A stretch of 64,000 nt of DNA, from positions 1 through 64,000 of the forward strand of contig SUXQ01000013.1 of assembly GCA_015060905.1 (NCBI GenBank), read 5' to 3'. Below are positions 19,691 to 28,696 of the stretch, in pieces. The position numbers and the translations under genes are program-made. Every line of letters begins with the position of its first letter. Within the stretch, counting starts at the first letter, position 1. This DNA is from Bacteroidales bacterium. GTDB taxonomy: Bacteria; Bacteroidota; Bacteroidia; Bacteroidales; Bacteroidaceae. The notes below the pieces were generated by a model. It was not told where the DNA came from. It searched no databases and worked only from the letters and a program-made list of their open reading frames with translations.

Positions 19691-19742
19691 AAATATTCAT
19701 ATAAAAAGGCGAGCTTCGGCTCGCCTTTTTATATGAATATTT
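19691..19742 (-). terminator. Perfect 24-bp terminator hairpin with TTCG loop
   Basis: Bases 19691-19714 are the exact reverse complement of 19719-19742, leaving the tetraloop TTCG (19715-19718). The inner core is GGCGAGC/GCTCGCC, flanked by A5/T5 and a further 12 bp of AT-rich pairs. The outer T-run gives a U-tract in either direction. It follows the last gene of the glycan operon by 9 nt and lies 134 nt upstream of dxs, so it closes the operon and insulates dxs. Confidence 0.9.
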
Positions 19743-19750
19743 ACTTAAAA

Positions 19751-21220
19751 TTACTTTATGCCAATATCCTCCATTTCCCAATCATCCGAGCGGAAAGAGG
19801 GGAGCGGAAGTCCCAGCAATGTGCGTACGTTGGCCTCGAACGAGTAGTTCTGATAGGCGTAGCGCACAGCAACCGGCTCGGGGACAGAGTCCGACCACAC
19901 TTCGATGGTGTTTTTGCACCACATGTGGTTGGCCTGCGCAGGATAGAATTTCTTGTCGGCACCGGCAACCTCGAAGCCTTTGGCACGCTCGCGAGCGTTG
20001 AAACAATCCTGCTGAGTAGGGTCGGCAGGGTCGAATGTGTTAGGCGGACACATATTAGAGAAGCTGAGTACCAATTTGTTACCCTTTTTCTCGAAAGACT
20101 TGAAACGAGGATATTTTACAGGTAGTCCTTCGATTCCGTAGTCGTTGGTGAGCGCAAGATTGGCAAGACGCTGACCGACCTTGTCTTTTGCCGCAGGGTG
20201 TATAAGCGAATAGTCGCCAATGTCGGTGGTGCAGACAATGTCGCAATTCTCAACCTCGTCGGCACACTTCCACTGTTGGTCCACAAACAGAGGAGTACCA
20301 CGCAGTTTGTGACCCTCGTAGCAGTAGGGAGCAATCTGTGTAAAATAGAAAGGCATCTTGTCGTTGCCCCAATCTTTACGCCATCCTTCAATCATAGCCT
20401 TCTGCAATTTTGCATAGTCGAACCAATTGTAGCGGTTGGCGCAGCCTTGGTACCAAATAAATCCTTTGGCTGTAAATTTGTTGATGGGGCGTATCATGCC
20501 ATTGTAAAGCACATTGTTGGTATTCGGACCACGATATTTTTTATCGTAGTCTATATTACGATCCTGTACGCCATCGAGAGCCTCTTTGCTCATCCACGCT
20601 TCGATGCGTGTACCGCCCCAATTTGCAGTGATAAGACCTACGGGAACATTAAGAATTTTCTGAAGTTCCTTACCAAAGAAATACGCTGCTGCACTGAAAG
20701 TGCGTACAGTCATAGGAGACGACTCGCGCCACATTGTATCGCAATCCTCTTTCGGAGTATTAGATGTGCAACGGGGAACAGTAAACATGCGAATATCGGA
20801 ATATTTGTAAGCCTCTTTTATATGCTCCAAAGCCCCATCGACAGGCTGATACATATAACCGCCAACAGGCATTTCCATATTGGACTGACCGCTGCACACC
20901 CACACCTCGCCCAGCAAGATGTTTGTAAGTTCGGTCTTTTCACCATCGTCGAAAGTGAGTGTATAGGGGCCGCCGGCATCCGCTGTGGGAATTGTAGTCG
21001 CCCACTTGCCATTCTCGTCGGCCTTTACACTGAATTTCTCTTTTGTCCACGATGCAGTGATTTTCACTTTTTTGTTTGCCTCGGCTGTTCCCCACAGATT
21101 AACATCGGTGTTACGCTGAAGCACCATATTGCTGCCTATCACCGAGGGAAGAGTCACTTTTGCCTGTGCCACGCTGAACATACAAGCGAGCGCCGCTGCA
21201 AGAATTGATATTTTTTTCAT
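19751..21220 (-). CDS. Secreted sialate O-acetylesterase-like SGNH esterase, copy 1
   Basis: The 489-residue protein has a signal peptide (about residues 1-20, ending AQA), an N-terminal beta-sandwich region (21-105), and an SGNH esterase domain with catalytic Ser113 in VCSGQSNMEMP, an oxyanion segment TANWGGTRIEAWMS and a C-terminal DYSLIHP with the catalytic Asp/His. The family (SASA/DUF303) removes acetyl groups from sialic acids or other acetylated sugars; which substrate is not readable. It is the last gene of the operon, 18 nt after its paralogue. The first 130 residues are nearly identical to copy 2 and the remainder is clearly more diverged. Confidence 0.87.
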   Translation of the reverse strand: MKKISILAAALACMFSVAQAKVTLPSVIGSNMVLQRNTDVNLWGTAEANKKVKITASWTKEKFSVKADENGKWATTIPTADAGGPYTLTFDDGEKTELTNILLGEVWVCSGQSNMEMPVGGYMYQPVDGALEHIKEAYKYSDIRMFTVPRCTSNTPKEDCDTMWRESSPMTVRTFSAAAYFFGKELQKILNVPVGLITANWGGTRIEAWMSKEALDGVQDRNIDYDKKYRGPNTNNVLYNGMIRPINKFTAKGFIWYQGCANRYNWFDYAKLQKAMIEGWRKDWGNDKMPFYFTQIAPYCYEGHKLRGTPLFVDQQWKCADEVENCDIVCTTDIGDYSLIHPAAKDKVGQRLANLALTNDYGIEGLPVKYPRFKSFEKKGNKLVLSFSNMCPPNTFDPADPTQQDCFNARERAKGFEVAGADKKFYPAQANHMWCKNTIEVWSDSVPEPVAVRYAYQNYSFEANVRTLLGLPLPSFRSDDWEMEDIGIK

Positions 21221-21238
21221 GACTTTTTACCTTTTTGA

Positions 21239-22708
21239 TTATTTTATTTCTTCGTCTTTAATTTCCCATTGATCGCTGCGGAACGAAGGCAATGCTTGTC
21301 CCAGCTGTGTGCGCACATTAGCCTCGCCCGGATAGTTGCAGTATGCGTAACGAACAGCTACGGGGTTAGGAACCGAGTCCGACCACACCTCTATTGTGTT
21401 GCGCTGCCAACGGTGACTACCCTTTGCGGGGTAGAATTTGCCATCCTCGCCGGCAACCTCGAAGCCTTTTGGTGTTTCGCGACTATATAGGCAGCTTGAC
21501 ATTCGATAGTCAAGGGGGTCGGTAGTGTAGGGTGGTGCAATGTTCTTGAAGTAAAGTTCAAGTTTATTACCCTTAACTACAAAGTAGTTAAAGCGAGGGG
21601 CCATTGATGGCAGACCTTCAATACCATAATCGTTGGCAAGCGCAAGCATTGCAAGGCGCTCGGCTACCCTTTTCTTCTTCAATGGGTGTATGTGGCTATA
21701 GTCGCCGGCATCCTGTGTGCAGGCAACCTCGCAATTTTCTATAAGGTCGGCCGCTTTATACTGCTGGTCGATAAAGATTGCATTAAGACGTTTGTTGCTG
21801 CCCTCGTAGCAGTAAGGTGCAATCTGTGTAATATAGAAAGGCATCTTGTCGTTGCCCCAAATTTCGCGCCACAGTTTCACCTGTGCAACCTGAAGTTTCA
21901 CATAGTCGTACCAATTGCCACGATTAGACTCACCCTGATACCACACAAAGCCTTTGGCTGTGAAATTGCAGATGGGACGTATCATTCCATTGTAAAGAAC
22001 ACTTGGGACATTTTCCCCGCGACGTCTGGCGTCGAGCGAAGAATTACGATCTTTTATGGCTGCAAGGCTCTCGCGGCTCATCCATGCTTCGATAATTGTA
22101 CCGCCCCAATTGGAAGTTACCAACCCTATGGGTACGTCAAGCATTTTGTTAAGTTCCTTGCCAAAGAGGTATGCAATAGCACTGAATGTGCGTACGGTCA
22201 AGGGGGATGACTCGCGCCACATAGTGTCGCAATCCTCTTTGGGAGTCTCGGAAATGCAACGGGGAACGGTAAACATGCGAATATTGGGATATTCATAAGC
22301 CTCGGCAATATCCTTTTCGACGCCATCGATAGGCTGATACATAAAGCCGCCAACGGGCATTTCCATATTGGACTGTCCGCTGCACACCCACACTTCGCCC
22401 AACAAAATGTTTGTTAGCTCGGTCTTTTCACCATCGTCGAAAGTTAGTGTGTAGGGGCCGCCGGCATCTACTGTGGGGATTGTTGTTGCCCACTTGCCAT
22501 TCTCGTCGGCCTTTACACTGAATTTTTCTTTTGTCCACGATGCGGTGATTTTCACTTTTTTGTTAGCCTCGGCTGTTCCCCACAAATTAACATCGGTGTT
22601 ACGCTGAAGCACCATGTTACTGCCGAGAATAGAAGGCAAAGTAACCTTGGCCTGCACAGCAAAAGGCAGGCTGACCAAAGCTACAAGAATAAATATAATT
22701 TTTTTCAT
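21239..22708 (-). CDS. Secreted sialate O-acetylesterase-like SGNH esterase, copy 2
   Basis: This 489-residue paralogue has exactly the same length and layout as copy 1: a signal peptide ending VQA, the N-terminal sandwich region, catalytic Ser in VCSGQSNMEMP, TSNWGGTIIEAWMS, and DYSHIHP near residue 355. Substrate-side positions differ in the C-terminal two thirds, so the two enzymes may act on different acetylated positions or glycans; this is inference. It lies 6 nt after the GH110-like gene, which suggests translational coupling. Confidence 0.87.
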   Translation of the reverse strand: MKKIIFILVALVSLPFAVQAKVTLPSILGSNMVLQRNTDVNLWGTAEANKKVKITASWTKEKFSVKADENGKWATTIPTVDAGGPYTLTFDDGEKTELTNILLGEVWVCSGQSNMEMPVGGFMYQPIDGVEKDIAEAYEYPNIRMFTVPRCISETPKEDCDTMWRESSPLTVRTFSAIAYLFGKELNKMLDVPIGLVTSNWGGTIIEAWMSRESLAAIKDRNSSLDARRRGENVPSVLYNGMIRPICNFTAKGFVWYQGESNRGNWYDYVKLQVAQVKLWREIWGNDKMPFYITQIAPYCYEGSNKRLNAIFIDQQYKAADLIENCEVACTQDAGDYSHIHPLKKKRVAERLAMLALANDYGIEGLPSMAPRFNYFVVKGNKLELYFKNIAPPYTTDPLDYRMSSCLYSRETPKGFEVAGEDGKFYPAKGSHRWQRNTIEVWSDSVPNPVAVRYAYCNYPGEANVRTQLGQALPSFRSDQWEIKDEEIK

Positions 22709-22714
22709 ATTGTA

Positions 22715-24418
22715 TTATTCAATAGTCACATTGTCGCAATGCTTGATTACAAAAGGATTAGTCTCTTCGCGACCAAACGCATAATCGTTGCTCTGCTCTA
22801 CTTTGTTGTTGCGGTAGGTAATTCCGTCGAAACAGCAAAGGTAAAGAATGCGGGGGTCGAATGTGCGGAAAGTGTTATTCTCTACTACTATATTGCGGTG
22901 GTAGCGACTTTTCTCTTGTTCGCTGATACGGCTGTTGTATGCAATGTGAGCGTCGCCCCACGACTTACAGCCATACAGACAGTTGTCGAACATATTGTTG
23001 CGTATCTGCACGTTGCGCACGCCCGACTGCTCGTACCAATAGCTTCCGTCACCCTCGAAGAGCACTGCCGAGCCGGGAACGTGGAAGTAGTTATTTTCGA
23101 TTATAACCTCGCCACGTGAGCCGATGAGAAGGCCGCGCGCACGGTTGTTTGCAAAGTGACAACCCTTGATAAGTACATCGGGATATTGGTCGTCGCAAGC
23201 AATGGGGTCTTTAATCTGCAGTTCCTCGGGCAGAGGCTCGGTGAATGTAATTTCGGCAAGCTCGCTGTTGATGCTGCGCACCTCTTTTACCACACGATGA
23301 GCGTAGGTCATCATAGTCTTGTGGTTGGCAATCTCCATATTCATGCCCGGACGCACAAAGTCTTTTCCGTAGTTGTACCACACAAGAATTTTATCCTTGC
23401 CTACAATCTCGCGTGTCATTGCGTACCAACCATGAATGTTTGTAGCATCGTCTTTCTGGTTGGTAAACTTACAATCTATCATGCGCAAATTGCCGCCGCA
23501 GTTGATAAAGTGAGTAGCATCGGCTGTCGCGCTTATCATACGGTCGCTACCGGGAGTGGGAACAACCTGCACCTTGTTAAGTTCAATGTCCTTTACACGC
23601 TGAACGATAAAGCCCATTCCTCCACAGTGGTAAACATTCACATTCTGCACAAGCACATTGTTACACTCGTCGAATGTAAAGCCGGGGTTCGAACGGCTGG
23701 CAGCGCCAAAGACCATTGTATTTCCAACGGTACCTGTCAAGTCCTTGAGGAATATTTTATAATTTCCGTTAGGAAGAGCCTCGGCCTGCAATCCGCTCCA
23801 CAACCAATAGTCGTGAACATAGTGGGCAACCTCTCTCTTCCGGCTGTCAAACTCGAGAAGACTGCCGTAAGAGTATGTAATATTATTCTTGTCGCGTATG
23901 CGCAACTGTCCGCCACGAATATCAACGTTGTAATTTTCGGGGAATTTAAGTTCCATCCAACCATCGCCAACATCCATAATCTCACCCTGAGAGTTAAATG
24001 TGTGAGTATAATCGATATTAAGGTCGCGAATGGTAATGTTGCTCGAATTCTCAAAATTGAAAGGCGACACAAAGCCTGTGAAAAGCAGTGTGGTACCGTT
24101 ACCCTCGACTGTAAAACCATCAACATTCTCTATATTGATGGCGATACGTTTTTTACCCTGAGAATTATTGCTTATATACTGATACCTCTCGAAACAATAT
24201 TTGTCCTTTATGCGCAACGTATCACCGGGGAACACCAAAGTGCTGTTTTTATATTTAAGACACTCTTCGACGGCCAAACGCAAGCCATACGAAACATCAT
24301 CTTTCATATCCTCGGTAATATAATCTTTCACATATACTGTTTTTCCCTCGGGAGCCGATGAACAAGCAGCAACAAATGCCATTGCCGAAAGAGCGAAAAG
24401 TTTAAAAAGTTTTTTCAT
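22715..24418 (-). CDS. GH110-like alpha-galactosidase lipoprotein (parallel beta-helix)
   Basis: The 567-residue protein is a lipoprotein (lipobox FVAAC, Cys19) with a right-handed beta-helix. Segments characteristic of GH110 are visible: VYHCGGMGF (263-270), SATADATHFINCGG (296-309), the acidic pair in QKDDATNIHG (321-330), then RARGLLIGSRGEVIIENNYF and SAVLFEGDGSYWYE. Characterised GH110 enzymes remove terminal alpha-1,3-linked galactose, including blood-group B epitopes. The exact linkage used here is inferred. The second ATG (24418) gives the normal lipoprotein signal; one at 24427 adds three residues. It lies 83 nt after the six-hairpin glycosidase. Confidence 0.8.
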   Translation of the reverse strand: MKKLFKLFALSAMAFVAACSSAPEGKTVYVKDYITEDMKDDVSYGLRLAVEECLKYKNSTLVFPGDTLRIKDKYCFERYQYISNNSQGKKRIAINIENVDGFTVEGNGTTLLFTGFVSPFNFENSSNITIRDLNIDYTHTFNSQGEIMDVGDGWMELKFPENYNVDIRGGQLRIRDKNNITYSYGSLLEFDSRKREVAHYVHDYWLWSGLQAEALPNGNYKIFLKDLTGTVGNTMVFGAASRSNPGFTFDECNNVLVQNVNVYHCGGMGFIVQRVKDIELNKVQVVPTPGSDRMISATADATHFINCGGNLRMIDCKFTNQKDDATNIHGWYAMTREIVGKDKILVWYNYGKDFVRPGMNMEIANHKTMMTYAHRVVKEVRSINSELAEITFTEPLPEELQIKDPIACDDQYPDVLIKGCHFANNRARGLLIGSRGEVIIENNYFHVPGSAVLFEGDGSYWYEQSGVRNVQIRNNMFDNCLYGCKSWGDAHIAYNSRISEQEKSRYHRNIVVENNTFRTFDPRILYLCCFDGITYRNNKVEQSNDYAFGREETNPFVIKHCDNVTIE

Positions 24419-24501
24419 AAGTTTCATAATTATAATATTAGTAAAAACTCCCACCCCACCCGAACAAAGGCAGAGTAGGAGATTCTATTTTTACACAGAA
24501 A

Positions 24502-26544
24502 TTAGATTTTTATATTTTTAATCTCTTCGCCGATGCGAACTGTGTATTTTTTCTGTTTGTCACCATTCTTGATGATAACCTGTGCACGAGTCTCGGACTT
24601 ACGTTTAACCTCAATGTCAAAGTCGCCACCGAACAATTTCACGTGACGGAGTGCCATTTCGTTCCATGCAGAGGGAAGCTGTATTGTGAGGTTGAACGAA
24701 TTGAAACTTGTGGGGTGGATGCCGAAGAGACCCTCTGTGATGATGCGGCAGTAGAGTCCGCTCTCGGCTGAGAGGTGACGCTGTGAACCCTCGGGCCATG
24801 CCTCGATGGGGTAAGGAACGTGTGTACCGAGAAGGCGACGGTTAGAGTAGTCGAGCAACTGCTTTGTAGCCTTGTCTGCTGCGCCTACTACATATACACC
24901 GCGAAGAGCGTAGAGTGTAGAGCGGTCCCAGAATGTAACATCGCCTTCGGCTGTGAGAAGTCCATCCACTGTACATAATTTGTCTGAATAGAGGGCGTCG
25001 ATTGTGCCCTGTGCACGCTCTTTGAAGCCGAATACGAGGGGCATACAAATCCATGAGCGGAGTACTGTATTGCCGTCGTAGTAGCGATAAGTCTCGTAAC
25101 CGCTTACGTTAGCTGAGAAGTATTTGTTGATGTTTTTCTTGAGCTCGGCAGCCTGCTTTCTGTATGTAGCAGCCAATTTGGGCTCGCCTACAAGGGGAGC
25201 AAGGTATGCTGCATTTACAAGACCGTCGTAGTAAAGAGTTGCGGTGCAGAGGTTAGCCTCACCTGAGGGGAAACGTCCTTCAAGCTCGTCTCTATCCGAG
25301 CGGGGAACGCCTGCGTCGTTCAGCTGACGACGTGTATATTCGAGACACCATTTGATGAAAGGCCACAATTCTATAGCCTCCTCTTTGCTGCCACGAGCAA
25401 GAAGATAACGTGTTGCGCCGTGTGCATTCATCGCTGCGTCGCCACGGTCACCTGCACCGCCCCATGTGTCGATACCCTCGGCTATGATAGAGCTGGGAAT
25501 GTGCTTATATTCGTCGTTCATGTAACGAGCAAAGAGCTTGTAGCAGTTGAGAGCAGACTCGTTACCTGTCTGGTAGCCCATGTAGGGGAAGAAGGGACTT
25601 ACATACTCTGATTGGTCGTTACACCAAATAGCAGCGTAGTATGACTCACCGCCGGGAGCGTGCATAAGACCACCCTTTGTGCGGCAGATGCTCTCCGATG
25701 CACGAATTTTAGAAAAACGAAACTCTGTGTCGATAACTTTTTCGGGAGTCTCGAGCACAAGTGCGCCATCGATGCTGTTGGCAATATAAGCCATACGCTT
25801 AGCATACTCAGCCTTTACGTCGGGTTTGAGAGCCTTTTCGGTCTTTTCGCGGTAAGCCTGGAAAGCAGCACCAAACTCGATGCTCTTGCCGGGCTCAAGT
25901 TTGTATGTACCCGAGCCGTAAACCTCTGACTGGATGATGTATGTACCATCAACACCCTTTGCAGGATCAGTCTTAAGTTTCTGAATAAATTCGGGGACAG
26001 CCACTGTCAGTGTGCGACCGGTAATATTCTTTACCTCATAAGTCTCGCACATCATGGGCAGTGTGGTGCTGGGGAAAATAGTTGTTGTAATCTCAACAAC
26101 GGGCGAGGGAGCTCTTTTGCGAGCCGCACCTGTGTTAGGAACACCAATACCATACTGGCTTACAACCTGCAACGCACCGTTGATAGAAACTTTTTTAACA
26201 CCAAGCTGCGCGGGAGCAAGATTGTTGATACCCAACATTGATATTACATCTGTCTGCACGCGGTACATCAACGAACCGTGAGTATTGTTGGGGATTGTGC
26301 GAAGCATGGGGAACACCAAAGAACGCTCCTGACTGAAGTTTTTATGTTCGTCCACGTTCCAACGTGTAACAAAAGAGACCATCTCACCACTCATTTCTAT
26401 GTGGTCGCTGTAGGGAAGTGTCTCGTCCGAGAGAATCATCTCAATGGCATTCGTCTCGGGATTGATTGTCCAGCACTGTTTCTGTGCGTTTACCGTTACT
26501 ACCGACATCAGTAGCAACGCTACGATTAATTGAAGTTTTTTCAT
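24502..26544 (-). CDS. Secreted six-hairpin glycosidase-like protein
   Basis: The 680-residue protein has a signal peptide (about 1-20, ending VNAQ), an N-terminal beta-rich domain (to about 250) and an (alpha/alpha)6-barrel-like C-terminal half. The second half carries patterns of six-hairpin glycosidases: DTWGGAGDRGDAAMNAHGA, SDRDELEGRFPSGEANL with candidate catalytic acids, FWDRSTLYALRGVY, and PEGSQRHLSAESGLYCR before a small beta domain. I cannot place it in a numbered GH family; families with this fold include GH78, GH95 and others. It lies 11 nt after the M60-like peptidase. Action on a host glycan is inferred from context. Confidence 0.7.
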   Translation of the reverse strand: MKKLQLIVALLLMSVVTVNAQKQCWTINPETNAIEMILSDETLPYSDHIEMSGEMVSFVTRWNVDEHKNFSQERSLVFPMLRTIPNNTHGSLMYRVQTDVISMLGINNLAPAQLGVKKVSINGALQVVSQYGIGVPNTGAARKRAPSPVVEITTTIFPSTTLPMMCETYEVKNITGRTLTVAVPEFIQKLKTDPAKGVDGTYIIQSEVYGSGTYKLEPGKSIEFGAAFQAYREKTEKALKPDVKAEYAKRMAYIANSIDGALVLETPEKVIDTEFRFSKIRASESICRTKGGLMHAPGGESYYAAIWCNDQSEYVSPFFPYMGYQTGNESALNCYKLFARYMNDEYKHIPSSIIAEGIDTWGGAGDRGDAAMNAHGATRYLLARGSKEEAIELWPFIKWCLEYTRRQLNDAGVPRSDRDELEGRFPSGEANLCTATLYYDGLVNAAYLAPLVGEPKLAATYRKQAAELKKNINKYFSANVSGYETYRYYDGNTVLRSWICMPLVFGFKERAQGTIDALYSDKLCTVDGLLTAEGDVTFWDRSTLYALRGVYVVGAADKATKQLLDYSNRRLLGTHVPYPIEAWPEGSQRHLSAESGLYCRIITEGLFGIHPTSFNSFNLTIQLPSAWNEMALRHVKLFGGDFDIEVKRKSETRAQVIIKNGDKQKKYTVRIGEEIKNIKI

Positions 26545-26555
26545 AGGATATAAAT

Positions 26556-27884
26556 TTATTTAGTCAATGCTTTTTTTATCATCGCAAGTTCGTTGGGTGT
26601 GTAGCAGGTACGTGTAACGTCTACCTGATATCCGACAATTTCGCTTGCTGCCTCGGAGAGATATTTCATAAGGCAGAGGAATTTCTCGTAATTGTTGTTG
26701 AAACGGCCAAGCTGGCTGTCGGGGGTTTTGTATAGCTTGTGGAATGCTTTTTTATAGACATCCCAACTGTAAATTTCGGCTATACGCATAAGTGTGTAGT
26801 GAATAGCGTCGCCCGAGTCGAGGTTACCCTTTTCTATGCATTTTTTGTAGGCACGTTTGTAATAGGCAATGTTGTCGCCCATATAGAAAGTATTCTGCGA
26901 AATTACCGCCTCGTATTTGTCAAGAGCATAGGACATGCGAAAATTGGCAAAAATCTCGTCGTTCCAGTTCCAAGAACCGTAGCCGTTGCCTACGGCTGTT
27001 CCTGCCGAAAAGACGTGTCCTATTTCGTGCAAAATGCCGAAGCCCCAATCTTTATGAGTCTTGAATTTATTCAAAAGGCCTTTAACGTCGGCATTGTCGT
27101 TCCAAAGGATGGGGTTACCCGCAAGTGCCCAATAGCCTGCCTCCATTCCCGGGGTTGTGAGGATGCGTATTTTTGCACCGCCGTAAGGAACAACGCCCAA
27201 CAGTTCTTCATAGGCCTCGTATGCCTTGTCGAGGGCCTGCAACCATTCATCGACAGTTTTATCATCAACATTTATATGTTTGGGGTCTACGGCAAGCACC
27301 ATGTGCTTACTCTCGCGCATATAAAGAGCCTCTTTGGGAGTCTCGGTTATTTTTACATCGTCGTACCACACTGTACCCTTTGCCTTGCCGCCATTGTATG
27401 TACCGCCGGGGAAGCCTAATGCGCAACTAACGTATGTTTCGCCCTTCTCGTCGCTGACAAAGTCCATATAGACCTCTTGCCAATCGGTGGTGCCGTAGAT
27501 GAATTTCGAGGCGTTCCAAGGCTGGTCGGAATTCTTGTCGAGTACGTCAAGATAGAGTATTGCGCCACGACCTTCGGCAACATCCTGTGTCTTTACTTTT
27601 GCCGACACGCGGTAGAAAGTATTGGGATTAAGACCTGTAAGATGCTTGGTGATTTTCACAACACCCTTCTCGCTGTTGGTGATTTTTACGCAACGAGAGC
27701 CGTCTGCACCCTCTTTGACAAATTTCACCGAAGAGGTCTTTGTGCTTTTGTCAATTTCCCAATTTTTCTTAGTGAATGAACTTTTGTCAAAATTGTCGCT
27801 GAAAATCTCTTTTGTGTCGCCGGATGCATATAATCCTTGTGATACAACAAAAGACGTCAGTAGCAATAAAAGTAATTGTTTCAT
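26556..27884 (-). CDS. Secreted M60-like zinc metallopeptidase with N-terminal carbohydrate-binding-type domain
   Basis: The 442-residue protein has a signal peptide (about 1-21) and a beta-sandwich of the carbohydrate-binding type (about 26-182, starting IFSDNFDKSSF and ending VWYDDVKITET). The peptidase domain follows, with H286-E-I-G-H290 and a downstream Glu310 in WNWNDEIFANF. This HExxH-x(19)-E spacing fits the gluzincin M60/enhancin pattern. Characterised M60-like proteins of gut commensals cut mucin-type O-glycoproteins. That role is inferred here from the family and from the glycosidase and esterase neighbours. It heads the five-gene operon. Confidence 0.8.
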   Translation of the reverse strand: MKQLLLLLLTSFVVSQGLYASGDTKEIFSDNFDKSSFTKKNWEIDKSTKTSSVKFVKEGADGSRCVKITNSEKGVVKITKHLTGLNPNTFYRVSAKVKTQDVAEGRGAILYLDVLDKNSDQPWNASKFIYGTTDWQEVYMDFVSDEKGETYVSCALGFPGGTYNGGKAKGTVWYDDVKITETPKEALYMRESKHMVLAVDPKHINVDDKTVDEWLQALDKAYEAYEELLGVVPYGGAKIRILTTPGMEAGYWALAGNPILWNDNADVKGLLNKFKTHKDWGFGILHEIGHVFSAGTAVGNGYGSWNWNDEIFANFRMSYALDKYEAVISQNTFYMGDNIAYYKRAYKKCIEKGNLDSGDAIHYTLMRIAEIYSWDVYKKAFHKLYKTPDSQLGRFNNNYEKFLCLMKYLSEAASEIVGYQVDVTRTCYTPNELAMIKKALTK

Positions 27885-28022
27885 AGTATATTAATTGAAT
27901 TTAAGGTTTGTTCGTGACAATATACAATACTTCAAAAAGCAAATATATGCAAAATTTTGCAATACTTAATAATTTGAAACAAAAAAACTTGAATTATTTA
28001 TTGTTGACCATCTTTCTAAAAT
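27885..28022 (-). promoter_or_regulatory. Upstream region of the glycan operon, weak promoter candidate
   Basis: This AT-rich stretch between a terminator and the M60-like gene must hold the operon promoter. TATATTTG read on the minus strand (27947-27940) fits the -7 box, 56 nt from the ATG. No good TTTG is found 19-21 nt further up. The weak -33 is compatible with a promoter needing an activator, but this is inference. A small palindrome GCAAAATTTTGC at 27949-27960 lies just upstream of the -7 box. Confidence 0.4.
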
Positions 28023-28054
28023 GAGAAAGTCGGAGCATTTACTCCGACTTTCTC
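28023..28054 (-). terminator. Terminator hairpin after the MORN gene
   Basis: GAGAAAGTCGGAG (28023-28035) pairs perfectly with CTCCGACTTTCTC (28042-28054) around CATTTA, a 13-bp stem. It lies 18 nt after the stop of the MORN gene on the minus strand and is followed there by ATTTTAG. On the plus strand it is followed by ATTTTTTC. It separates the yicC operon from the glycan operon. Confidence 0.85.
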
Positions 28055-28072
28055 ATTTTTTCTAAAGAATCT

Positions 28073-28696
28073 TTAATCGACTTTTTTGTCACCTATCCAC
28101 TTACCGTGAAAAATTCGTCTGTCAGTCTTAAAGAGCGCACCGTAACCTTGACGGTAACCATCCACATACTTTCCGTACCAAAAATCGCCGTTCGTCCAAT
28201 AGTAGATGCCGTATCCGTGACGACGGCCGTTGCACACTTCGCCAAAGTACGCATCGCCGTTGCTGTATGTTATTTTGCGAAAAGAATAAGGATTCAGTTC
28301 CTCGGCAGAATATTCAACGTCGCCCTCGATTGTATGCACACGAATAACGTTGCCGGTGGAAAGGTCATACTCGACAAAGTGCGTCTCGCCACCCACACGC
28401 GCAACGCCTTTACCCATCGTTATTCCAAACACATGCCTGCCGCGAATGTATTGTCCGAACACCTGACTGCCGTCGTCAGCAAGAAAGTGCCCCCAACCGT
28501 AAATTACATTATCGACAAGCTGACCAACATACTGCCCATGAGTGCTTGAGATATATTTTATCTCGCCCTCCGAGACATAATCGCAAAAGACAGCTTGCAA
28601 AATATCGCTCATTTCATCGTAAAATTTCACTATTTGCTGAGCTTTTGCAAAGAAAGGAAGAAGTGCAAAAATCAACAAGAATATTCTTTTCTTCAT
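28073..28696 (-). CDS. Secreted MORN-repeat protein
   Basis: This 207-residue protein has a signal peptide (about 1-19, ending AKAQ). Its second half has MORN-type repeats: YSNGDAYFGEVCNGRRHGYG, then WTNGDFWYGKYVDGYRQGYG, then FKTDRRIFHGKW. Two more diverged repeats lie near residues 53-90 (HGQYVGQLVDNVIYGWGHF). MORN repeats in bacteria are mostly structural or protein-binding, and no enzyme domain is seen. Its ATG overlaps the nadD stop (ATGA), so it is coupled to the yicC-gmk-nadD transcript. The functional link to those housekeeping genes is unknown. Confidence 0.82.
   Translation of the reverse strand: MKKRIFLLIFALLPFFAKAQQIVKFYDEMSDILQAVFCDYVSEGEIKYISSTHGQYVGQLVDNVIYGWGHFLADDGSQVFGQYIRGRHVFGITMGKGVARVGGETHFVEYDLSTGNVIRVHTIEGDVEYSAEELNPYSFRKITYSNGDAYFGEVCNGRRHGYGIYYWTNGDFWYGKYVDGYRQGYGALFKTDRRIFHGKWIGDKKVD

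What the first reader, a model, noticed from the sequence alone, without database searches (positions are those of the whole stretch)
19691..27884. Five-gene secreted operon that looks built for host mucin glycoproteins
Seen: five minus-strand genes with gaps of 6-83 nt between a terminator at 28.03 kb and a terminator at 19.7 kb, each with a signal peptide or lipobox. Known: M60-like peptidases cut mucin-type glycoproteins, GH110 removes alpha-1,3-galactose (blood-group B type), and the SASA family removes acetyl groups from sialic acid or other sugars. Inference: together they deacetylate, trim and cut O-glycosylated host proteins, with the six-hairpin enzyme on an unknown linkage. Unlike a classical polysaccharide-utilisation locus there is no SusC/SusD pair, no sensor and no sialidase next to it. 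The combination could be a small, transporter-free surface module.
Basis: partly seen in the sequence, partly recalled or inferred. Interest (0 to 1): 0.7.

Follow-up and report, generated by a model that had tools for sequence, protein, structure and literature searches.

The report
Conserved gene cassette for host glycoproteins
Five neighbouring genes, found together in several bacteria from ruminant hindguts, encode exported enzymes that probably strip and cut sugar-coated host proteins such as mucus; most parts are of known types, but one enzyme belongs to no family in the libraries we could search.

Summary
The five minus-strand genes (19751-27884) are real, intact and under purifying selection. 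Pfam confirms GH110 and two SASA esterases; M60 is borderline (25.5 bits, cut-off 25.8) but keeps HEXXH-19-E. The 680-aa protein (HAIRPIN) has no Pfam or NCBIfam hit; its model is an exported (alpha/alpha)6 enzyme, most like GH94 in fold. The order M60-HAIRPIN-GH110-SASA1-SASA2 recurs in five other MAGs, four with a different upstream flank; the four records naming a source are from ruminant hindgut. A covarying stem-loop between HAIRPIN and GH110 and, in four of five, a promoter-like block are kept. Host O-glycoprotein degradation is the best reading: the genome has 8 M60 matches (most of 121 family genomes) and a GH20-GH110 pair; relatives add GH123, GH97 or galactokinase. Weakened: 'surface module' (here only GH110 has a lipobox, though three relatives' M60 match a loose lipobox pattern) and blood-group-B specificity (nearest solved GH110 cuts linear Galalpha1-3Gal only; its fucose-excluding residues are absent here). 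A relative carries SusC/SusD inside the cluster. No activity was tested.

The parts
26556..27884 (-). M60-like gluzincin peptidase, 442 aa, signal peptide, N-terminal carbohydrate-binding-like jelly roll (residues about 23-183), HEIGH-19-E motif
24502..26544 (-). HAIRPIN: exported 680-aa protein, beta-sandwich + (alpha/alpha)6 barrel + C-terminal beta domain, unclassified glycosidase-like
   Evidence: No Pfam hit at E 0.001, no NCBIfam hit at 0.01; model pLDDT 84.4; 14 best Foldseek rows are cellobiose/chitobiose-type phosphorylases, best E 5e-18; conserved acids over 19 aligned sequences
22715..24418 (-). GH110 alpha-1,3-galactosidase, predicted lipoprotein (lipobox VAAC)
   Evidence: GLAA-B domains I and II and Beta_helix; 370 bits to PdGH110B 7jw4, Asp triad and +1 Arg conserved; lipobox pattern in 7 of 7 copies
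21239..22708 (-). SASA1: SGNH-type carbohydrate esterase (PF03629), signal peptide
   Evidence: PF03629 48.1 bits; GQSNM, WYQG and D..HP motifs
19751..21220 (-). SASA2: paralogue of SASA1, signal peptide
   Evidence: PF03629 63.6 bits; best solved relatives 9h4u, 9ega, 7kmm; motifs intact
24448..24481 (-). Intercistronic stem-loop between HAIRPIN and GH110, conserved with compensatory changes
   Evidence: 7 sequences: 96.2% of cells paired, 4 of 16 pairs with changes on both sides, covariation 0.271 against 0.164 shuffled
27939..27964 (-). Promoter-like block TATTGCAAAATTTTGCATATATTTGC with a TAnnTTTG -7-type box (27940-27947)
   Evidence: Same aligned block upstream of M60 in L038, L040, L041, L042; absent in L039 (GH97 ends 21 nt upstream) and not aligned in L047
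19694..19739 (.). Bidirectional terminator-like hairpin closing the unit
   Evidence: 20-pair stem
28018..28059 (-). Perfect 18-bp inverted repeat between the MORN-repeat gene and the cassette
   Evidence: Read in the sequence and checked; not listed by the terminator scan

Best explanation
A self-transcribed five-gene cassette, probably transferable, for processing O-glycosylated host glycoproteins or glycopeptides in ruminant-hindgut Bacteroidales. SHOWN: the five genes are conserved as a unit, are intact and carry signal sequences, with GH110 catalytic residues and M60 and SGNH motifs in place. INFERRED: glycopeptides or oligosaccharides enter the periplasm through an outer-membrane transporter encoded elsewhere. 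The two SASA esterases remove O-acetyl groups that would block exo-glycosidases; GH110 removes terminal alpha-1,3-galactose (the alpha-Gal epitope of non-primate mammals, and perhaps the B antigen); HAIRPIN hydrolyses a further linkage that is then exposed; and the M60-like enzyme, holding the glycan with its carbohydrate-binding domain, cuts the peptide. The intercistronic stem-loop probably sets the relative amounts of the M60-HAIRPIN and GH110-SASA messages.
For: Same gene order in 5 other MAGs, upstream flank differing from the window's in 4 of 5. Promoter-like block in 4 of these 5 and covarying stem-loop in all 7 copies compared. The genome has 8 M60 matches, 7 over the cut-off, the most of 121 family genomes (next 6), and three GH110 genes, one directly after a GH20. 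Partner genes in relatives: GH123 just after SASA2 in L040 and L042; GH97 just before M60 in L039; GH110 just after aldose epimerase and galactokinase in L044, which fits galactose release; SusC/SusD inside the cluster in L043. GH110-SASA pairing recurs in a second, distant cluster GH110-GH97-SASA. The N-terminal domain of the M60-like protein weakly matches a GH101 (endo-alpha-GalNAcase) domain, and GH101 structures are among its fold matches. Record titles name buffalo, deer and cattle hindgut.
Against: No activity or expression data. The M60 match is borderline (25.5 against 25.8 bits), and no M60 structure is among the listed fold or profile matches. The best fold matches of its N-terminal domain are assorted CBMs, the first a porphyran binder, so it does not name a target. 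The closest solved GH110 is a lambda-carrageenan enzyme. The SASA family also holds esterases of other sugars (recalled). HAIRPIN homologues sit in mixed contexts, including beside GH97 and starch-type enzymes. Periplasmic placement rests on signal sequences read by eye and one pattern; the M60-like protein matches the lipobox pattern in 3 of 7 copies, not in the window. Of the five PF00884 'sulfatase' hits of the genome, the three examined have 4-5 hydrophobic segments and look like membrane phosphotransferases, so they do not support sulfated-glycan use. No sialidase, fucosidase or GalNAcase is in the cassette.
Confidence: 0.56

Rival explanations
1. The cassette is aimed at a dietary alpha-1,3-galactan (carrageenan-type) or another O-acetylated polysaccharide, and the M60-like protein is incidental.
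For: GH110 is closest to PdGH110B of the lambda-carrageenan pathway; carrageenan loci occur in ruminant gut Bacteroides and include GH110 members (PMC13168452, passages); the first fold match of the M60-like N-terminal domain is a porphyran-binding CBM.
Against: The neighbours scanned around the copies gave no carrageenase-type family (GH16, GH82, GH150 and GH167 were not searched genome-wide). The basic residues K207/R208 of PdGH110B are G and S here and the finger carrying K195 is missing. The peptidase gene is in the 7 cassette copies and in L043. The genome is rich in M60.
Confidence: 0.12
2. The enzymes, or at least GH110 and the M60-like peptidase, are surface-exposed and act directly on mucin.
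For: All five carry signal sequences; GH110 has a lipobox; the M60-like protein matches a loose lipobox pattern in L040, L041 and L042; the M60 enzyme BT4244 is a surface protein (PMC11992087, sections 6 and 16).
Against: In the window, L038, L039 and L047 the M60-like protein has no lipobox match; HAIRPIN, SASA1 and SASA2 have none in any copy. The acid-rich surface-export signal expected after the GH110 lipobox (recalled) is not seen.
Confidence: 0.21
3. A general-purpose glycan-scavenging cluster without a single target: GH110 and esterases clean up assorted galactosylated, acetylated oligosaccharides.
For: HAIRPIN homologues occur beside diverse enzymes; no SusD of PF14322 type on the window's contig.
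Against: The same gene order in 6 genomes with purifying selection on all five genes.
Confidence: 0.11

Closest known systems
Mucin-inducible PUL BT4240-50 of Bacteroides thetaiotaomicron (PMC11992087; abstract, outline, sections 6 and 16 read)
   Same: An M60-like O-glycopeptidase encoded with exo-glycosidases for O-glycoprotein breakdown; model of glycopeptide import followed by periplasmic trimming.
   Different: BT4240-50 has SusC/SusD, an SGBP, sigma/anti-sigma genes, GH2, GH109 and a kinase; its M60 is a surface lipoprotein. Here: no SusC/SusD, mostly plain signal peptides, GH110, two esterases and an unclassified six-hairpin protein.
PdGH110B, alpha-1,3-galactosidase of the lambda-carrageenan pathway (7jw4/7jwf; PMC7939477 and PMC12549532, passages read)
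   Same: Homology over residues 34-578; Asp triad (D303, D326, D327 counted from the Met at 24427) and +1 Arg (R429) conserved.
   Different: No finger insertion; K207/R208 replaced by G/S; companion genes are a peptidase and esterases rather than sulfatases and GH150.
GH94 phosphorylases (for example chitobiose phosphorylase 1v7v; GH94 label recalled except for 8bou)
   Different: About 12% identity, exported protein, no sequence match above Pfam's cut-off; a fold relative, not a shown member.
Sialate O-acetylesterase-type SGNH enzymes (9ega, 7kmm; EstA of Bacteroidetes, PMC5512079, search listing only)
   Same: PF03629 domain, GQSN nucleophile motif, HP motif.
   Different: About 490 aa, without the roughly 200-residue insertion seen in the 640-aa homologues (alignments of 9h4u and 9ega); target sugar unknown; present as a tandem pair.

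Membership tests
GH110 | Full-length sequence homology to characterised members | tested here: met
   370 bits to 7jw4 over residues 34-578; GLAA-B I and II over cut-off
GH110 | Catalytic Asp triad and +1 Arg | tested here: met
   Residues from PMC7939477 mapped on the alignment; motifs in 7 of 7 copies
GH110 | alpha-1,3-galactosidase activity; B antigen or linear | not testable with these tools
   needs protein
Peptidase M60 | Score over Pfam's cut-off | tested here: inconclusive
   25.5 against 25.8 bits; 26.3 with its neighbours in the frame in the genome search; homologue in L043 27.0
Peptidase M60 | HEXXH with downstream Glu | tested here: met
   HEIGH-19-E in the window, pattern in 7 of 7 copies; that the pattern defines M60 is recalled
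Peptidase M60 | Fold match to a solved M60 enzyme | tested here: inconclusive
   none among the rows listed for a model of pLDDT 78
Peptidase M60 | O-glycan-dependent cleavage | not testable with these tools
   needs assay
SASA (PF03629) | Domain over cut-off and SGNH motifs | tested here: met
   63.6 and 48.1 bits, cut-off 24.8; motifs
SASA (PF03629) | Sialate specificity | not testable with these tools
   no marker residue tested
Classical Sus-type PUL | Adjacent SusC/SusD pair | tested here: not met
   Both PF14322 hits of this genome are on contig C20, the window is on C10 (PF07980 was not searched); present in L043
GH94 | Sequence match to the family model | tested here: not met
   Only 1 of 19 sequences hits PF17167, at E 0.1
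GH94 | Same fold | tested here: met
GH78 / six-hairpin rhamnosidase | Score over Pfam's cut-off | tested here: not met
   Window protein 14.7 bits against 24.5; 8 of 19 sequences hit PF17389 at E 1 or better, best 0.00088

The most novel reading that the evidence does not exclude
HAIRPIN founds an uncatalogued family of exported GH94-fold hydrolases, and the cassette is a horizontally shared, transporter-free periplasmic module specialised for alpha-Gal-capped, O-acetylated mucin glycopeptides of non-primate mammals, with its own promoter and a conserved intercistronic RNA element.
Probability: 0.25. Interest if true: 0.6.

Novelty: new variant of a known kind. Interest (0 to 1): 0.42.

Why it matters
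If right, it ties a poorly annotated six-hairpin family to host-glycan degradation and gives a defined five-enzyme set for testing how ruminant-hindgut Bacteroidales use alpha-Gal-bearing, O-acetylated mucins. It would also show that glycoprotein modules can persist and spread as cassettes without SusC/SusD.

Tried and rejected
Chance grouping: rejected by gene order in 5 other genomes and dN/dS. The stem-loop 24448-24481 as a plain terminator: unlikely, since it covaries and in 5 of 7 copies (L038-L042) no T-run directly follows the stem; but the window and L047 do have a T-run, so partial termination is not excluded. GH94, GH65 or GH78 membership of HAIRPIN: fold only, no sequence support over a cut-off. 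Profile of the M60-like alignment against PDB: two chance-level hits (E 0.12-0.13) in C-terminal helices to a clostridial neurotoxin chain, not followed. No M60 structure appeared among the listed fold matches of that model; CBM matches fill much of the list. 'Five sulfatases' as support for sulfated mucin: dropped, because the three of five examined have several hydrophobic segments. Empty site: 30 of the 40 MORN loci were fetched, with 1.5-kb flanks at most; of the 29 besides the window, one carries the M60-like gene (L092) and one a different GH110 (L095); none shows dxs, so no clean empty site. The literature searches listed no paper that I recognised as describing this gene combination; only listings, titles and abstract starts were seen there. 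CAZy/dbCAN and MEROPS were not available.

Full report
OBSERVATION. Gaps are 11, 83, 6 and 18 nt when GH110 starts at 24418, as its orthologues do. The 19694-19739 hairpin is a strong bidirectional terminator candidate; the repeat at 28018-28059 has perfect 18-bp arms but was not listed by the terminator scan. All five proteins begin with a signal sequence (by eye); in the window only GH110 matches a lipoprotein pattern (recalled PROSITE-type rule).

GH110. The best solved relative is PdGH110B (370 bits), then GH110A of the same pathway (233), 8pvs (201; Akkermansia origin recalled), PpaGal (156) and 8yk1-3 (103-105). PdGH110B cuts Galalpha1-3Gal but not the B antigen, and its K195 and K207 are said to close the pocket where fucose would sit (PMC7939477, passages). 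In the window protein the finger carrying K195 is absent and K207/R208 are G/S. Sequence similarity therefore points towards the linear-selective enzyme, while the pocket residues look open. Blood-group-B activity is undecided.

CONSERVED CASSETTE. A scan of named genomes with GH110 gave 14 loci. Five (L038-L042) hold the full order M60-HAIRPIN-GH110-SASA1-SASA2. L047 (a contig also held as L020, judged by length and coordinates) has M60-HAIRPIN-GH110-SASA with a single SASA. L043 has SASA-M60-HAIRPIN-SusC-SusD-GH110. L045, a short contig, has GH110-SASA. L044 and L046 have GH110 without the others. L048 and L049 are distant GH110 loci; L050 has four GH110-like ORFs and a partial SASA-like ORF; L051 is a 25%-identity fragment. 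L038 shares the window's upstream flank yicC-gmk-nadD-MORN but not its downstream flank; the other four five-gene copies share neither. No mobile element was looked for, so transfer is inferred from flanks, patchy presence and the copy in another genus (G095). Titles name water buffalo cecum (L038, L040, L042), roe deer colon (L039) and cecum (L043), dairy cattle cecum (L044) and water deer rectum (L045, L047); L041 and L046 name no host. In the family sample 21 of 399 genomes (own included) have a GH110 at E 1e-100 or better, five besides the window at 73% identity or more. dN/dS is 0.04-0.08 where dS was not saturated.

NEIGHBOURS IN RELATIVES. GH97 21 nt before M60 (L039), GH123 after SASA2 (L040, L042), a PF00884 sulfatase 962 nt upstream (L041), aldose epimerase and galactokinase just before GH110 (L044), SusC/SusD (L043). 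A second cluster GH110 (45%)-GH97-SASA (48%)-GDSL esterase lies right after the MORN gene in G240 (L121); L122 has the same order by blast, lengths and N-termini; L123 has GH110-GH97. Only selected neighbours were scanned with Pfam.

OWN GENOME (2.54 Mb, 31 contigs, 87.5% complete). Eight PF13402 matches, 7 over the cut-off and one fragment with stops below it; the highest count among 121 family genomes, 40 of which have any. Three GH110 genes, one directly after a GH20. Two PF14322 SusD-type hits, both on another contig; PF07980 was not searched. Five PF00884 hits, of which three were examined and have 4-5 hydrophobic segments, more like membrane phosphotransferases than secreted sulfatases. 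Two weak BNR_2 hits, not shown to be sialidases. The M60 and GH110 counts fit a glycoprotein feeder; the sulfatase and sialidase searches add no support.

REGULATION. The block TATTGC-AAA-TTTTG...TATATTTGC (or TATTTTTGC) upstream of M60 is shared by the window, L038, L040, L041 and L042, not by L039, and is not aligned in L047. The TAnnTTTG box is the Bacteroidetes -7 motif (recalled). Between HAIRPIN and GH110 all 7 copies have a stem-loop: 96.2% of cells paired, 4 of 16 pairs with double changes, covariation 0.271 against 0.164 in shuffles (0 of 500 as high) and at most 0.119 when slid. Seven related sequences make this good but not overwhelming evidence.

MECHANISM. HAIRPIN, SASA1 and SASA2 have no lipobox match in any copy; GH110 has one in all 7; the M60-like protein has one in L040-L042 but not in the window, L038, L039 or L047. 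The periplasm is the likelier site here, with a surface peptidase possible in relatives. The proposed sequence (deacetylation, alpha-Gal removal, HAIRPIN cut, peptide cut) is inference. It parallels the BT4240-50 model of glycopeptide import and periplasmic trimming (PMC11992087, sections 6 and 16), except that there the M60 is on the surface.

VERDICT. A genuine conserved cassette of mostly known enzyme types; a new variant of a known kind. Its interest lies in the unclassified HAIRPIN enzyme, the recurrent GH110-SASA association, and the form without SusC/SusD.

Noticed in passing
19751-22708, nt 111-330 of SASA1 and SASA2: The N-terminal segments of the two SASA genes are 92.7% identical in DNA, against 62.7% before and 68.3% after; in this segment window S1 groups with window S2 and L038 S1 with L038 S2 (low support), while the rest sorts by orthologue. 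Likely repeated gene conversion.
   Followed up: partly
L121:1217-7264, L122:207-6253: A second, distant cluster GH110-GH97-SASA-GDSL esterase; in L121 it follows the MORN gene, the same site where the window carries the five-gene cassette.
   Followed up: partly
L126:2737-9650 and L127:4832-15111 (own genome, contig 14): Tandem arrays of two and three M60 peptidases of about 1100 aa (one of each array scanned with Pfam).
   Followed up: no
28073-28696: Secreted MORN-repeat-like protein after nadD, found in 40 of 44 genus genomes, mostly in a yicC-gmk-nadD-MORN block; role unknown.
   Followed up: no
L047:11727-13196: The single SASA of the four-gene cassette has HA in place of the HP motif and branches between SASA1 and SASA2 in the tree of nt 331 to the end, as expected if the pair arose by later duplication.
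   Followed up: partly
L036:2406-17198: Another HAIRPIN homologue lies in a locus with a strong M60 peptidase (112 bits), PL8 fused to a GH95-like domain, GH95 and heparinase-type proteins.
   Followed up: no
L050:7733-18609: A distant Bacteroidia contig has four GH110-like ORFs among its genes and a partial SASA-like ORF at its end.
   Followed up: no
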